A DNA stretch of 64,000 bases from Hymenobacter sp. J193. Its GTDB lineage: Bacteria; Bacteroidota; Bacteroidia; Cytophagales; Hymenobacteraceae. Where the stretch lies: NCBI RefSeq assembly GCF_024700075.1, contig NZ_JAJONE010000001.1:2818001-2882000 (forward strand). Reading direction: 5' to 3'. The notes under the pieces are model-generated. The model saw only the letters and a list, made by a program, of their open reading frames with translations, was not told the DNA's origin and searched no databases. Shown piece by piece: positions 53,666 through 59,896 of this stretch (position 1 is the first letter of the stretch; every line of letters starts with the position of its first letter). A program made the translations under genes and the position numbers.

Positions 53666-53944
53666 ATGGCACGTTCGCTAAAAAAAGGGCCGTACATTGA
53701 CTTCCGGCTCGAGAAGAAAGTTTCGGCAATGGAAGACTCCGGCAAAAAGTCGGTGGTGAAGACCTGGTCTCGCCGCTCGATGATTTCGCCAGACTTCGTA
53801 GGCCACACCTTCGCCGTTCACAACGGCAATAAGTTCATTCCGGTGTATGTGACGGAAAACATGGTTGGCCATAAGCTCGGTGAGTTTGCCCCCACCCGTA
53901 ACTTCCGTGGCCACATCGCCAAGAAAGATAAAGGCAAGCGCTAA
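53666..53944 (+). CDS. rpsS: 30S ribosomal protein S19
   Basis: A 92-residue S19 of the 30S head: [20 protein letters not shown], then [52 protein letters not shown]. Normal length, four bases after rplB. Confidence 0.97.
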
Positions 53945-53945
53945 G

Positions 53946-54425
53946 ATGGAAGCAGTAGCTAAACTCCGTAATGTGCCCACCTCGCCGCGCAAAATGCGCT
54001 TGGTGGCCAACCTGGTACGCGGTCAGAAAGTGACCCGTGCTCTGGGCTTGCTGAAATTCGAGGCAAACTCCGGTGCCGCCCGCGTTGAAAAACTGCTCCT
54101 GTCGGCTCTGGCCAACTGGCAGCAGAAGAACGAGGACGAGCGTATCGAAGACGCGAACCTCTACATCAAAGAGATTTTCGTGGATGAAGGCCGCCAGTTG
54201 AAGCGTCTGCGCCCCGCCCCCCAAGGCCGTGGCCACCGCATCCGCAAGCGCAGCAACCACGTGACGCTGATCCTGGATTCGAAGGTAGAACCGCTCGGTA
54301 GCAAAGCTGCCGCCCAGCAAGCTTCCGAAACTACGTCTGCCGATAACGCCGCCGCTCCGAAGAAAACCACTCGTCGCAGCTCGGCTAAGAAATCCACCGA
54401 AACCAAGGCAGAAGCCTCCGCATAA
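53946..54425 (+). CDS. rplV: 50S ribosomal protein L22 with long C-terminal extension
   Basis: The core L22 ([52 protein letters not shown]...[27 protein letters not shown]) is normal and includes the tunnel hairpin. At 159 residues it is well over the usual ~110-115: the last ~45 residues are Ala/Ser/Thr/Lys-rich ([25 protein letters not shown]) and probably disordered on the solvent side. ATG 53946 lies one base after the rpsS stop. Confidence 0.96.
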
Positions 54426-54430
54426 GCACT

Positions 54431-55318
54431 ATGGGACAGAAAGTAAATCCGGTTGGCTTCCGTCTGGGCGTCATCAAAGGATGGGACTCGAACTGGTACG
54501 GCGGCAAGGACTTTGCCGACAAACTGGTGGAGGACGAAAAGATCCGCAAGTATATCATGGCTCGTATCCCGAAAGGTGGCATTAGCCGCATCGTGATTGA
54601 GCGTACCCTGAAGCGTATCACCATCACCATCAACACGGCCCGTCCGGGCGTGGTAATCGGTAAAGGTGGCGCTGAGGTGGATAAGATCAAGGACGAGCTG
54701 AAGCAGATTACCGGCAAAGACGTTCAGATCAACATCTTCGAAATTAAGCGTCCGGAACTCGACGCCAAGCTGGTAGGGGAGAGCATTGCCCAGCAGCTGC
54801 AGGCGCGTATCTCGTTCCGTCGCGCCATGAAGATGTCTATCCAGGCTGCTATCCGCGTTGGTGCCGAAGGCATCAAAATCCAGTGCGGTGGCCGTTTGGG
54901 TGGTGCTGAAATTGCCCGCTCCGAGCAGTACAAGGAAGGTCGTACGCCGTTACACACACTGCGCGCCGATATCGACTACGCCCTGTCGGAAGCTCAGACC
55001 GTGTATGGCAAGATCGGCATCAAGGTGTGGATCATGCGCGGTGAGGTATTCGGCAAGCCCGACCTGTCGCCCAACCAGGTTCCTGCCAACCAAGGCAACG
55101 ACACCCGTGGTGGCAATGACCGTGGCCCACGCGGTGAGCGTGGTGACCGTGGTGGTGACCGTGGCCCGCGTCGCGACCGGAATGACCGGGGTGGCGACAA
55201 TCGTGGCGGTGACAACCGCGGCGGTGGTCAGGGTGCTGGTGGTGGCGCTCCTCGCCGTAGCGGTGGAGGTCCCGGTGGTCAGAACCGTGGTGGTCAGGGT
55301 GGCGGCCCCCGCCGCTAG
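54431..55318 (+). CDS. rpsC: 30S ribosomal protein S3 with C-terminal RGG tail
   Basis: The core S3 (residues 1 to about 215) is standard: [25 protein letters not shown] domain with [23 protein letters not shown], and [32 protein letters not shown]. At 295 residues it exceeds the usual ~210-240. Residues about 222-295 form a tail made almost wholly of G, R, N and D, with repeated [10 protein letters not shown] and RGDRGGDRG motifs. S3 lines the mRNA entry channel. A similar tail is on the N-terminus of S5 (59303). The tail is probably unstructured and RNA-binding; that role is inference. Confidence 0.96.
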
Positions 55319-55358
55319 TCCTTTTCCTTTCTCTCGAATCTCAATTCAAGAATAACTC

Positions 55359-55781
55359 ATGTTACAGCCGAAAAGGACCAAGTATCGCAAGATGCAAAAG
55401 GGTCGCGTGCATGGCCTAGCCTACCGCGGCAGCTCCATTGACTTCGGTTCGTTTGCTATCAAGTCGCTCGAAACGGCTTGGATTACGGCACGACAGATCG
55501 AAGCGGCCCGTATCGCCATGACCCGCGCTATGAAGCGTGAAGGCCAGGTGTGGATCCGAATTTTCCCCGACAAGCCAATTACCAAGAAGCCAGCCGAAGT
55601 GCGGATGGGTAAGGGTAAAGGTTCGCCCGAGTACTGGGTAGCCGTTGTGAAGCCTGGTACCATCATGTTCGAGTCGGACGGGGTAACCCTGGAAGTAGCG
55701 CAGGAGTCGCTGCGTCTGGCCGCGCAGAAACTGCCGGTTCGTACGCAATTCATTGTTCGTCGCGACTATCAAGAAGCATAA
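55359..55781 (+). CDS. rplP: 50S ribosomal protein L16
   Basis: A 140-residue L16. Contacts A-site tRNA and is placed late in 50S assembly. Motifs: [38 protein letters not shown], then [38 protein letters not shown] with the conserved Arg-Met-Gly-Lys-Gly-Lys-Gly loop. Normal length. Confidence 0.97.
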
Positions 55782-55784
55782 ACC

Positions 55785-55997
55785 ATGAAGAACGCCGATA
55801 TCCGCGCCCTCTCCCTAGAGGACCTCAAAAACCAGATCAAGACCGAGCAAGCCAATGGCCAGAGCCTGCGTTTCGCGCACGCTATTTCGCCCCTGGAAAA
55901 CCCGCTCCGCCTGAACCAAAGCCGCAAGAATGTCGCCCGTCTGCTGACCGAGCTCAAGCGTCGCGAGAACGAGCAGGCAACTAACACTGCTAACTAA
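55785..55997 (+). CDS. rpmC: 50S ribosomal protein L29
   Basis: A 70-residue two-helix protein beside the tunnel exit: [58 protein letters not shown]. Three bases after rplP and two before rpsQ. Confidence 0.95.
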
Positions 55998-55999
55998 CG

Positions 56000-56290
56000 A
56001 TGGCAAGCAACGAAGCACAGCAGGCCCCTGCCGCCGAAGAGCGGAACCTGCGCAAAGAAATCATCGGGCGCGTTTCCTCCTCCAAAATGGACAAGTCCAT
56101 TACGGTGATTGTGGAAAGCAAAATGAAGCACCCGATCTACGGTAAGTTCGTTACCAAGTCGACCAAGTTCATGGCCCACGACGAGAATAACGAATGCGGC
56201 GAAGGTGATACCGTGCGTATCATGTCGACCCGTCCGCTGAGCAAGAACAAACGCTGGAGACTGGTAGAAATCGTAGAACGCGCCAAGTAA
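56000..56290 (+). CDS. rpsQ: 30S ribosomal protein S17
   Basis: A 96-residue OB-fold protein binding 16S helix 11. Core: [80 protein letters not shown]. The N-terminus ([14 protein letters not shown]) is a short extra segment. One base separates it from rplN. Confidence 0.96.
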
Positions 56291-56291
56291 G

Positions 56292-56659
56292 ATGATACAG
56301 CAAGAATCCCGTCTGACCGTCGCTGATAACAGCGGCGCCAAAGAAGTTCTCTGCATCCGTGTCCTCGGTGGCACGGGCAAGAAATACGCCAGCGTAGGCG
56401 ACAAGATCGTAGTAGCCATCAAATCGGCTATTCCGTCCGGCAACGCCAAAAAGGCGCTGTATCCAAAGCCGTGGTAGTTCGCACGAAGAAGGAAATCCGC
56501 CGCAAGGACGGTTCCTATATCCGCTTCGACGACAACGCGGCCGTACTGCTCAACAACAACGACGAGCCCCGCGGCACGCGTATCTTCGGCCCCGTGGCCC
56601 GCGAACTGCGCGAAAAGCAGTTCATGAAGATTGTTTCGCTGGCTCCTGAAGTTCTCTAA
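56292..56659 (+). CDS. rplN: 50S ribosomal protein L14, frameshifted in this sequence
   Basis: Binds 23S rRNA at the subunit interface. The N-terminal half ([54 protein letters not shown]) reads correctly to residue 54, then derails (ALYPKPW, stop at 56477). The rest ([62 protein letters not shown]) is one base out. At 56448-56454 the sequence is AAAAAGG; one more G gives the universal [17 protein letters not shown] and a 122-residue protein. L14 is essential, so a base-deletion error in the sequence is by far the likeliest cause. Confidence 0.94.
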
Positions 56660-56662
56660 GCA

Positions 56663-56926
56663 ATGGCAACGAAAACGAAAGCAACGCCCGCGAAACTGCA
56701 CGTAAAAACTGGTGATACCGTATTGGTAATTGCCGGCGACGAGAAAGGCAAAACCGGTGTTATCAAATCGGTGAACCGCTCGACGCAGCGTGTTATCGTG
56801 GAAGGCCTGAACCTGGCAACCAAGCACAACAAACCCAGTGCGAAGAACCCCCAGGGCGGCATCACGAAGATTGAAGCCGGCATTCACGTGAGCAACGTGA
56901 AGGCGGTGGAATCGACCACCCGCTAA
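56663..56926 (+). CDS. rplX: 50S ribosomal protein L24
   Basis: An 87-residue KOW-domain assembly initiator: [72 protein letters not shown]. It ends at the shortened C-terminus common in this phylum, without the later part of the E. coli protein. Three bases after rplN. Confidence 0.94.
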
Positions 56927-56940
56927 CCTGCCCTACCACA

Positions 56941-57501
56941 ATGGCTCGACTCAAAGAGAAATATCAAAAAGAAGTAGTACCGGCGCTCCAGGAGAAATTC
57001 CAGTTCAAGAGCATCATGCAGGTACCACGCATCACCAAGATCTGCATCAACCGCGGCATTGGCGCGGCGGTAGCCGACAAGAAGCTGGTGGACAACGGTG
57101 TGGATGAACTGACGACCATAACTGGTCAGAAGGCTGTTCCTACCATTGCCAAGCGTTCGGTGTCGAACTTCAAACTGCGTGAAGGTATGCCAATCGGTGC
57201 CCGCGTTACCCTGCGTGGCAATCAGATGTACGAGTTTCTCGACCGTCTGCTGACCGTAGCGCTGCCCCGCGTGCGTGACTTCAAAGGCATCAACGACAAA
57301 GGCTTCGATGGCCGCGGTAATTATACCCTGGGCATCAAAGAGCAAATCATCTTCCCGGAAATTTCGATTGACAAGATCAAGTCGATTGCCGGTATGGATA
57401 TCACCTTCGTAACGACGGCCGAAAACGACGAACAGAGCTACGAGCTGCTGCGCGCCTTCGGTATGCCATTCGCTAACGCCAAGAAACAAAACAATGGCTA
57501 A
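56941..57501 (+). CDS. rplE: 50S ribosomal protein L5
   Basis: A 186-residue L5 of the central protuberance, contacting 5S rRNA and P-site t[117 protein letters not shown]. Overlaps rpsN by eight bases. Confidence 0.97.
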
Positions 57502-57763
57502 GGAATCGATGAAAGCCCGGGAGCGGAAGCGCATTGCTGTCGTTGCCCGCTACGCCGAGAAGCGCAAAGCCCTGAAAGCGGCCGGCGACTACGAAGGCCT
57601 GGACAAACTGCCCCGCAATGCCTCGCCCGTGCGTTTGCACAACCGCGACAAAATTGACGGCCGCCCCCGTGGATACATGCGCAAGTTCGGCATCAGCCGG
57701 GTGCGTTTCCGCGAAATGGCCCTCGCCGGCAAAATTCCCGGCGTGACCAAGTCCAGCTGGTAG
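57494..57763 (+). CDS. rpsN: 30S ribosomal protein S14, zinc-independent form
   Basis: An 89-residue S14 without any Cys, the longer C-minus type rather than the ~61-residue zinc-ribbon type: [32 protein letters not shown] and [43 protein letters not shown]. The start overlaps the end of rplE in another frame. Confidence 0.96.
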
Positions 57764-57877
57764 TACCACTGCTATTGTCTTAAAGCAGTTCGCCTGCGCA
57801 AGACAATGATACATGGCAGGTTGCCAAAAGAAACCATTGGCCGAGCCTTAACAAGCCGAGCCGAGTAGTCTTAACTG

Positions 57878-57914
57878 AAAATTTCGTCGCCGCTTTCCGT
57901 GGCGGCGAAATTTT
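57878..57914 (+). terminator. Hairpin ending in T run between rpsN and rpsH
   Basis: AAAATTTCG (57878-57886) pairs with CGAAATTTT (57906-57914), with an inner CCGC/GCGG stem. A terminator-like structure directly before, and partly overlapping, the next promoter. Confidence 0.62.
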
Positions 57915-57924
57915 CCTATCTTTG
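57894..57924 (+). promoter_or_regulatory. Internal promoter before rpsH
   Basis: TATCTTTG at 57917-57924 matches TAnnTTTG, with TTTC at 57894-57897, 19 bases upstream, as a weak -33 element. The 199-base gap (57764-57962) contains this and the hairpin. Confidence 0.65.
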
Positions 57925-57962
57925 CGGCCCCTAGAATTAGGAGCTTCTTTTCTACATTCTCA

Positions 57963-58361
57963 ATGAATACAGATCCAATTGCCGACTACCTGACCCGGGT
58001 ACGCAATGCCATCAAGGCAAACCACCGGGTAGTAGAGATTCCGGCCAGCAACATCAAAAAGGAAATCACGAAAGTGCTCTACAAGAAAGGGTACATTCAG
58101 AGCTACCGCTTTGATGATGCAGCAGTACAAGGCACGATCAAAATCGCGCTGAAGTACAACCCAACCACGAAGGCTCCTGCCATCACCAAGCTGGAGCGCA
58201 TCAGCTCGCCTGGTCTGCGTACGTATGCTCACGTGGAGAACCTGCCCCGCGTATTGAGCGGTCTGGGTATTGCAATTCTGTCGACGTCGAAAGGCGTGAT
58301 GACGGAGAAAGAGGCAAAAGCCGAAAACGTGGGCGGCGAAGTGCTGTGCTACGTCTACTAA
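57963..58361 (+). CDS. rpsH: 30S ribosomal protein S8
   Basis: A 132-residue S8, a primary 16S rRNA binder: DPIADYLTRVRNAIKANHRVVEIPASNIKKEITKVLYKKGYI and LPRVLSGLGIAILSTSKGVMTEKEAKAENVGGEVLCYVY. In enterobacteria S8 represses spc; no S8 operator was recognised here. First gene after the internal promoter. Confidence 0.97.
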   Translation: MNTDPIADYLTRVRNAIKANHRVVEIPASNIKKEITKVLYKKGYIQSYRFDDAAVQGTIKIALKYNPTTKAPAITKLERISSPGLRTYAHVENLPRVLSGLGIAILSTSKGVMTEKEAKAENVGGEVLCYVY

Positions 58362-58381
58362 TCTGAAAGGAAAACGAGACT

Positions 58382-58936
58382 ATGTCACGCATTGGTAAAC
58401 TGCCCATCAGCCTGCCCGCCAACGTGCAGGTTGAAGTGAGCAACGAAAATACGGTAACCGTAAAGGGCCCAAAAGGCACGCTGGTTGTTCCGGTAGACCG
58501 CGACATCATCGTGGCGCAGGAAGACGGCCAGCTGGTGGTAACCCGCCCTACGGAGCAGAAGCGTCACAAAGCTATGCACGGCCTCTACCGCTCTTTGCTG
58601 AACAACGCGGTAAGCGGTGTTAGCAACGGTCTGGAAGAGAAACTGGAGTTGGTAGGTGTAGGTTACAAAGCCTCCATGGCTGGTACCACCTTGGAGCTGG
58701 CTCTGGGCTACTCGCACAATATCTTCCTGGCGCTGCCGAAGGAAGTAACGGCTACTGCTGTTACCGAAAAAGGCAAGAACCCCATCGTAACCCTCACCAG
58801 CATTGATAAGCAGTTGCTGGGACAGGTAGCCGCCAAAATTCGTTCGCTGCGTAAAGTTGAGCCCTACAAAGGCAAAGGCGTACGCTTCGTGGGCGAGCAG
58901 ATTCGTCGTAAGGCTGGTAAAACGGCTTCGAAATAA
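58382..58936 (+). CDS. rplF: 50S ribosomal protein L6
   Basis: A 184-residue two-domain protein near the sarcin-ricin loop: MSRIGKLPISLPANVQVEVSNENTVTVKGPKGTL, and late LTSIDKQLLGQVAAKIRSLRKVEPYKGKGVRFVGEQIRRKAGKTASK. Normal length. Confidence 0.97.
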   Translation: MSRIGKLPISLPANVQVEVSNENTVTVKGPKGTLVVPVDRDIIVAQEDGQLVVTRPTEQKRHKAMHGLYRSLLNNAVSGVSNGLEEKLELVGVGYKASMAGTTLELALGYSHNIFLALPKEVTATAVTEKGKNPIVTLTSIDKQLLGQVAAKIRSLRKVEPYKGKGVRFVGEQIRRKAGKTASK

Positions 58937-58945
58937 CATCACACC

Positions 58946-59296
58946 ATGGCTTTCGATAAAGCAACTAGAAGAAAACGGATCCAGCGCATCATCCGCACTA
59001 AGGTGGCTGGCACGTCCGAGCGCCCGCGTCTGTCGGTGTTTCGCAGCAATACGGGCATTTATGCCCAGATTATTGACGACACCATTGGCCGCACGCTGGC
59101 AGCTGCTTCCTCGAAGCACGTTTCGGTGGAAGGGGGCAACGGAGTCGCCCTCGCCGCCGCAGTCGGCAAAGAGCTTGCCGCCCGTGCTCAGGAAAAAGGC
59201 ATTACGAAAGTGGTATTTGACCGTTCGGGTTACCTCTACCACGGCCGTGTAAAATCATTGGCAGAAGGAGCCCGCGAAGGCGGCCTTAATTTCTAA
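58946..59296 (+). CDS. rplR: 50S ribosomal protein L18
   Basis: A 116-residue 5S-rRNA-binding protein: [109 protein letters not shown]. Starts nine bases after rplF. Confidence 0.97.
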
Positions 59297-59302
59297 CGCA
59301 TC

Positions 59303-59896
59303 ATGGCAGAATTCAACAACAACCGTGGTGGCGGTAATGACCGGGGCGGCAATGACCGTCGTGGTGGTGGAAACGACCGAGGCGGTAACCGTGACCAGGC
59401 TCCCCGCGCGGCCGAGTCCGACCTGAAAGAAAAAGTGGTTGCCATCAACCGCGTAGCGAAAGTGGTAAAAGGCGGTCGTCGCTTCAGCTTCTCTGCTATC
59501 GTGGTAGTAGGCGACGGCAACGGCACCGTAGGCTACGGCCTTGGCAAAGCCAACGAAGTAACTGACGCCATTGCCAAAGGCATTGACGACGCCAAGAAAA
59601 ACCTGGTGAAGGTGCCGCTGTACAAGCACACCGTTCCTCACGTAATGGAAGGCAAGTACTCCGGTGGCTTCGTACTAGTTCAGCCAGCTGCTGCTGGTAC
59701 CGGTGTAATTGCTGGTGGTGCTATGCGTGCCGTATTCGAAAGCGCCGGTATTAAAGACGTACTGGCTAAGTCGAAAGGCTCGTCGAACCCCCACAACGTG
59801 GTAAAGGCAACTTTCGATGCGCTGCTGAAAATGCGTGACCCGATGCAGATTGCTCAGGCCCGCGGTATCACACTCGCCCAAGTATTTAACGGTTAA
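59303..59896 (+). CDS. rpsE: 30S ribosomal protein S5 with N-terminal RGG extension
   Basis: Core S5 from about residue 40 is normal: [66 protein letters not shown] and [36 protein letters not shown]. The 197-residue total exceeds the usual ~165-170 because residues about 5-40 are an extension of N, R, G and D with repeated NDRGG and NDRRGGG motifs, then [12 protein letters not shown]. The same style of sequence forms the tail of S3. S3 and S5 together form the mRNA-unwinding entry site, so both tails should project near incoming mRNA. Confidence 0.96.

What the first reader, a model, noticed from the sequence alone, without database searches (positions are those of the whole stretch)
54431..59896. 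RGG/NDRGG tails on both S3 and S5, neighbours at the mRNA entry channel
S3 carries about 74 extra C-terminal residues and S5 about 35 extra N-terminal residues, both built from repeated [10 protein letters not shown] and RGG motifs. Such motifs bind RNA in eukaryotic and cold-shock RNA-binding proteins. S3 and S5 touch each other where mRNA enters and is unwound. Two separate genes with the same tail style at one ribosomal site suggests coordinated function, for example mRNA capture, helicase support, cold adaptation or ribosome clustering.
Basis: partly seen in the sequence, partly recalled or inferred. Interest (0 to 1): 0.78.

Follow-up and report, generated by a model that had tools for sequence, protein, structure and literature searches.

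The report
RGG tails on ribosomal S3 and S5
A Hymenobacter-like bacterium carries arginine-glycine tails on two neighbouring ribosomal proteins near where messenger RNA enters; the S3 tail is old and common in its phylum, while the S5 tail is a newer addition that resembles tails found on S5 in eukaryotes and in acne bacteria.

Summary
S3 (54431-55318, 295 aa) ends in an 85-residue Arg/Gly/Asn/Asp tail with 6 RGG; S5 (59303-59896, 197 aa) begins with a 36-residue tail with 4 RGG, more than composition gives. Both tails are under purifying selection (pN/pS 0.13-0.15 against 0.77 in neutral simulation). They did not arise together: S3 tails with an RGG occur in 164 of 249 loci, including 75 of 140 outside the family, while S5 tails with two or more RGG were seen only in Hymenobacter (32 of 229). 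The H. gummosus group has richer S3 tails and a bare S5. Correlation corrected for ancestry is weak or absent, though one Hymenobacter clade is RGG-poor in both. The site has precedent: cryo-EM places uS5 N-terminal extensions of Mycobacterium smegmatis and Cutibacterium at the mRNA entry; the Cutibacterium one is RGG/NDR-like. Eukaryotic uS5 also has an RG-rich N-terminal extension. Most likely a convergent, mRNA-contacting arm on S5 added to an older S3 arm; RNA binding is inferred. A new variant of a known kind of ribosomal-protein extension.

The parts
54431..55318 (+). rpsC, ribosomal protein uS3, 295 aa
   Evidence: ORF list; family PF00189 in the own genome at this place; nearest solved chain 7jil_h
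55061..55315 (+). C-terminal tail of S3 (aa 211-295): 30 G, 17 R, 9 D, 8 N, 6 RGG, net charge +7, no aromatic, no Lys
   Evidence: pN/pS 0.134 over 9 pairs
59303..59896 (+). rpsE, ribosomal protein uS5, 197 aa
   Evidence: ORF list; nearest solved chain 7jil_j aligned from aa 39 on
59303..59410 (+). N-terminal tail of S5 (aa 1-36): 10 G, 7 R, 7 N, 4 D, 4 RGG, net charge +2
   Evidence: pN/pS 0.146 over 9 pairs; S5 tails with 2 or more RGG seen only in the window's genus
59330..59358 (+). 15-bp tandem repeat (about 1.9 copies, 92% match) inside the S5 tail, over NDR(G)GG units
   Evidence: Tandem Repeats Finder
55185..55226 (+). 15-bp tandem repeat (about 2.8 copies, 77% match) inside the S3 tail, over RGG units
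   Evidence: Tandem Repeats Finder

Best explanation
Two flexible, Arg/Gly-rich arms sit at the mRNA entry of the 30S subunit. The S3 arm is an old Bacteroidota feature; in Hymenobacter a second arm of the same chemistry grew at the N-terminus of S5, perhaps by expansion of short in-frame repeats, and was then kept by selection on its amino acids. The arms most likely make weak, sequence-independent contacts with RNA phosphates on the downstream side of the mRNA (or with nearby 16S rRNA), helping mRNA loading and retention in ribosomes that do not use Shine-Dalgarno pairing, and possibly occupying the empty channel. Shown here: presence, distribution, selection, difference in age. Inferred: position (from uS5 extensions in other bacteria), disorder, RNA binding, effect on loading, origin by repeat expansion.
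For: Motif enrichment. Purifying selection: pN/pS 0.146 (S5 tail) and 0.134 (S3 tail) over 9 pairs, against a neutral simulation mean of 0.77 for each, lowest of 300 runs 0.52 and 0.67. S3 open frames of 287-332 codons in all 60 matching genomes of 61 searched in the genus. The uS5 N-terminal extension extends into the entry channel in M. smegmatis, and density in the entry was attributed to it in C. acnes; the extension of 8crx_E aligns with the window tail as an RGG/NDR-rich stretch. Bacteroidia ribosomes fail to recognise SD sequences (start of the abstract of PMC9976891).
Against: No direct evidence of RNA binding, or of position in a ribosome with this S5 tail. The S5 tail appears shortened or RGG-poor in parts of the genus, so it is dispensable over evolution. 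Most other Bacteroidota sampled have a short S5 start (median 11 aa over 203 rows). Net charge is modest (+7 and +2). The AlphaFold model was poor over the whole protein (mean pLDDT 45.8) and says nothing on disorder. The ancestry-corrected link between the tails is weak.
Confidence: 0.45

Rival explanations
1. Gate or plug: the S5 tail occupies the mRNA entry of idle ribosomes and must be displaced, regulating initiation or hibernation, as proposed for C. acnes uS5.
For: The C. [quoted passage not shown] similar composition.
Against: The assignment is an attribution to otherwise unmodelled residues, and the authors say the M. smegmatis map lacks that density. No data in Bacteroidota.
Confidence: 0.2
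2. Ribosome assembly or rRNA chaperone tails: the arms help S3 and S5 fold onto 16S rRNA, with no role on mRNA.
For: RG-rich motifs are associated with RNA and protein binding, and the eukaryotic uS5 N-terminal region is needed for binding its chaperone Tsr4 in yeast (passages). That many r-protein extensions bind rRNA is recalled.
Against: The window's S5 tail has one Phe and no FG motif of the kind described for PDCD2. No chaperone was searched for here.
Confidence: 0.15
3. Mostly drift: in-frame expansion of GC-rich 15-bp units gives tolerated low-complexity tails of no particular function.
For: 15-bp tandem repeats in both tails; variable length between species; short or RGG-poor S5 tails in some lineages.
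Against: pN/pS 0.13-0.15 in both tails against 0.77 in a neutral simulation; repeat units use varied synonymous codons in the window; S3 frames stay long across the genus.
Confidence: 0.12
4. Coupling or clustering: the arms contact RNA polymerase, the next ribosome in a polysome or RNA helicases rather than mRNA itself.
For: The mRNA entry faces the polymerase in coupled complexes (recalled); the own genome has DEAD-box helicases with RGG-bearing ends (L289 and L294).
Confidence: 0.08

Closest known systems
N-terminal extension of uS5 in Actinobacteria (chains 8crx_E, 215 aa, and 5v93_e, 220 aa; recalled as C. acnes and M. tuberculosis)
   Same: Same protein, same end, Arg/Gly/Asn/Asp-rich; 8crx_E shows RGG and NDR runs, 5v93_e is Arg/Asp-rich (alignments). 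S3 of the same structures is also long (269 and 274 aa).
   Different: The C. acnes and M. smegmatis uS5 also have a C-terminal helical extension; the window's S5 ends with the core. Relatives of Hymenobacter lack the S5 tail, so it is taken as convergent.
RG-rich N-terminal extension of eukaryotic uS5 (RPS2), substrate of PRMT3 or Hmt1
   Same: Same protein, same end, RG-rich, unmodelled in the structure cited (PMC10216425, passages).
   Different: The eukaryotic tail has FG-type motifs linked to PDCD2 and is methylated; the review calls the extension unique to eukaryotes and absent in E. coli. The Hymenobacter tail has Asn/Asp spacers and no FG; methylation unknown.
C-terminal tail of uS3 in other Bacteroidota (7jil_h, 252 aa, recalled as F. 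johnsoniae)
   Same: Same place, Gly/Arg/Lys-containing, begins with a DLSP linker.
   Different: Hymenobacter tails are longer (70-94 aa in 48 loci) and, apart from the frameshifted L021/L210, hold no Lys.
Disordered r-protein extensions of Mycoplasma pneumoniae
   Same: S3 (273 aa) and S5 (219 aa) are both long in 7ooc (species recalled); such extensions are called common throughout bacteria (PMC9534751, passages).
   Different: Composition was not compared here; by that paper S3 there has only 17 residues beyond the E. coli end.

Membership tests
RGG/RG-motif RNA-binding tail | Clusters of several RGG/RG repeats beyond composition | tested here: met
   6 RGG in the S3 tail, 4 in the S5 tail; shuffle means 2.06 and 0.49
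RGG/RG-motif RNA-binding tail | Disordered | tested here: inconclusive
   S5 model poor throughout: residues 1-38 under pLDDT 50, but 133 of 197 residues are too; S3 not modelled
RGG/RG-motif RNA-binding tail | Binds RNA; Arg methylation | not testable with these tools
   needs biochemistry and mass spectrometry
uS5 N-terminal extension of actinobacterial type | Arg/Gly/Asn/Asp-rich N-terminal extension ahead of the conserved uS5 core | tested here: met
   phmmer alignment runs into the extensions of 8crx_E and 5v93_e
uS5 N-terminal extension of actinobacterial type | C-terminal helical extension of uS5 | tested here: not met
   window S5 ends at residue 197 with the core; the chains of 215 and 220 aa run on past the match
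uS5 N-terminal extension of actinobacterial type | Lies in the mRNA entry | not testable with these tools
   no structure at hand of a ribosome with this tail; precedent only
Eukaryotic uS5 RG-rich N-terminal extension | RG-rich extension at the N-terminus of uS5 | tested here: met
   sequence against the description in PMC10216425
Eukaryotic uS5 RG-rich N-terminal extension | FG or FxxxFG motif for PDCD2/Tsr4 | tested here: not met
   one Phe in the window's tail, followed by Asn
Coordinated S3+S5 tail pair | Tails gained and lost together | tested here: not met
   S3 tail much wider than S5 tail; 202 contrasts: RGG r 0.145 (p 0.18), RG r 0.169 (p 0.18), length r 0.122 (p 0.03), Arg r 0.17 (p 0.025), Arg+Lys r 0.026 (p 0.75); within Hymenobacter s.s. 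RGG r 0.22, p 0.14

The most novel reading that the evidence does not exclude
S3 and S5 RGG arms act as one flexible clamp at the mRNA entry of a lineage that does not use Shine-Dalgarno pairing, and uS5 N-terminal RG arms at this site have evolved at least three times (eukaryotes, Actinobacteria, Hymenobacter) as a general solution for holding or gating mRNA. The joint RGG poverty of both proteins in the H. nivis-H. arizonensis clade would be the trace of this partnership.
Probability: 0.25. Interest if true: 0.7.

Novelty: new variant of a known kind. Interest (0 to 1): 0.42.

Why it matters
If the arms hold or gate mRNA, one genus offers a natural series of S5 with full, reduced and no tail for asking what r-protein extensions at the mRNA entry do, a question that the structural papers seen here leave open. 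RG-rich arms on the same end of uS5 in unrelated lineages would point to a shared need at that site.

Tried and rejected
Gained and lost together: rejected as a general rule, kept as possible for one clade. Independent pairs (means of 200 random pairings): in 5 pairs differing in Arg-rich S5 starts, S3 RG content went the same way in 2.0, the other way in none, no difference in 3.0; in 16 pairs differing in S3 RG content, Arg-rich S5 went the same way in 2.6, the other way in a few pairings only, no difference in 13.4; too few to test. Cold adaptation: names fall on both sides; growth temperatures were not looked up. A genome-wide RGG style: the period-5 RGG pattern in the own genome gave 25 matches, fewer than its reversed control (10+15 against 16+19); by reading the frames I kept S3 and two DEAD-box helicases (L282/L289 and L284/L294), but did not check each other frame against annotation, and the pattern misses other spacings, S5 included. 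A third helicase frame (L291) holds 2 RGG. RRM: no match in the own genome. S1 domains: 10 matches in 5 frames, of which I looked at two (L309, L312), without RGG. The S3 tail against the own genome found only itself, 6 candidates scored. Tails alone against PDB sequences: no match. AlphaFold of S5: poor, not used. In print: searches listed no paper on RGG tails of bacterial S3 or S5; the library is open access only and most listed papers were not opened. A first check of rplN used too strict a motif and was replaced.

Counts over all loci are therefore not frequencies. Of 261 loci, S3 was found in 249 (L181 with no tail at all, which the scripts dropped from their count of 248 and from the trees) and S5 in 229; 32 lack S5 and 12 lack S3, because the operon is split, the contig ends or the stretch was short; the gene order of 9 of the 32 was looked at. 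Rows L021 and L210 (frameshifted) were left out of the trees; 214 loci had both genes, 203 after merging identical cores; L002 has the window's cores and stands for it. S5 starts were taken as the most upstream ATG, doubtful in L019 and L165. Of 10 pairs named for pN/pS, L205-L209 contributed nothing (9 used); the pairs are not all independent. The neutral simulation has no insertions or deletions and ran at pS 0.30 and 0.47 against 0.217 and 0.37 observed.
Full report
What is there. The window lies in a Hymenobacter-like genome (S3 matches in 60 of 61 genomes searched in its genus; best named S5 matches H. lucidus and H. elongatus). S3 and S5 lie 4 kb apart on the same strand in a run of ribosomal protein genes. 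S3 ends in an 85-residue tail and S5 starts with a 36-residue tail, both dominated by Gly, Arg, Asn and Asp. Motif counts exceed those of shuffled tails. Both tails contain short 15-bp tandem repeats, whose units use varied synonymous codons.

Selection. In 9 pairs of related Hymenobacter loci pN/pS is 0.146 in the S5 tail (344 codons) and 0.134 in the S3 tail (691 codons), against 0.026 and 0.016 in the cores. Because aligning repeats can hide changes, I simulated neutral change and realigned: mean 0.77 for each, lowest of 300 runs 0.52 (S5) and 0.67 (S3). The tails are therefore protein under selection, though looser than the cores. Length varies: 55 S3 and 11 S5 residues stayed unaligned.

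Distribution. Among 261 loci, 164 of 249 S3 have at least one RGG in the tail. Outside the window's family the share is 75 of 140: 46 of 80 in the order, 15 of 26 in the class, 14 of 34 in the phylum (sampling groups). Only 32 of 229 S5 have two or more RGG; all 32 are in the window's genus or bear a Hymenobacter title (15 and 17). After merging identical cores, 22 of 203 rows have such an S5, and all 22 have 4-7 RGG in S3. Among the 20 genus loci taken plus the window, 18 hold S5 and 15 of these have two or more RGG. A search with the S5 tail region over 5.8 billion proteins returned 67 of 469 candidates, all with S5 domains; the S3 tail region returned 99 of 3733, all with S3 domains; every organism named in these lists is a Hymenobacter. 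These searches need shared exact words and similar length, so unrelated RGG tails elsewhere would be missed.

History. On a tree of nine ribosomal proteins for 71 rows, S5 RGG state (two or more) needs 4 changes and S3 state (three or more) also 4. The group around H. gummosus has S3 tails with 7-8 RGG and an 11-residue S5 start. Within Hymenobacter s.s., L013, L016 and L019 have a reduced S5 tail and 4-5 RGG in S3, while the clade of H. nivis, properus, frigidus, artigasi, ruricola, rubidus and arizonensis has 0-1 RGG in S5 and 0-2 in S3. Contrasts along the phylum tree: RGG r 0.145 (sign-flip p 0.18), RG 0.169 (0.18), length 0.122 (0.03), Arg 0.17 (0.025), Arg plus Lys 0.026 (0.75) (202 contrasts); within Hymenobacter none is significant. 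Raw correlations (Spearman 0.25-0.51) thus mostly reflect ancestry. An Arg-rich S5 start usually comes with an RG-rich S3 (40 of 45 rows), the reverse less often (40 of 101). So the S3 arm is the older one and the S5 arm was added. A separate long S5 start, rich in Asn, Arg and Gly but without RGG, occurs in L145, again with an RGG-bearing S3 tail.

Precedent, from passages only. In M. [quoted passage not shown] In C. [quoted passage not shown] the alignment shows RGG and NDR runs in the extension of 8crx_E. In eukaryotes the uS5 N-terminal extension is RG-rich, unmodelled and methylated (PMC10216425). Extensions are described as common in bacteria, and their disruption as affecting fitness in M. 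pneumoniae (PMC9534751). In some searches, which list the best 60 of 173 and of 92 sequences, the bacterial series with S5 over 200 aa that I could match (8crx, 5v93/7kgb, 32nj, 7ooc) go with S3 of 269-275 aa. Against this, S5 of 198 aa in 8yp6 goes with an S3 of 210 aa, and chloroplast S5 chains of 253 and 308 aa with an S3 of 218 aa. Three of the four series are Actinobacteria by recalled species names, so these are few independent cases.

Reading. I favour a weak RNA-holding arm on S5 joined to an older arm on S3, in ribosomes that do not recognise Shine-Dalgarno sequences (start of the abstract of PMC9976891). A channel plug is the main rival. A structure and tail deletions would decide.

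Noticed in passing
window 56292-56659: rplN (L14) is split into two overlapping frames near 56470 in the window (61-aa ORF, then a second ORF); among 183 loci where its start was seen, 182 have a frame of 120-122 aa and only the window is broken, so a sequence error is likely.
   Followed up: partly
L018, L020, L062, L065, L112: After S14 no S8, L6, L18 or S5 is found within the 8-kb stretch, also in two genomes of the window's genus (L018, L020), so the operon appears split there; in L042, L047 and L096 only S3 of the twelve genes sought was found.
   Followed up: no
L021 and L210 (Hymenobacter sp. BRD67): The S3 tail changes frame, and in L021 S8 and L5 match in two pieces, which looks like assembly error.
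   Followed up: no
L289:294-2306; L294: DEAD-box helicases of the own genome with RGG-bearing C-terminal ends: a long SYGGNRGG-type tail in L289, and a short RFRGGNSRGG-type end in L294.
   Followed up: partly
L145: An S5 from another family of the same class starts with an independent 38-residue Asn/Arg/Gly/Ser-rich extension.
   Followed up: no
window 53865-54425: L22 has a long Ala/Thr/Lys-rich C-terminal tail, another apparently extended ribosomal protein next to S3.
   Followed up: no
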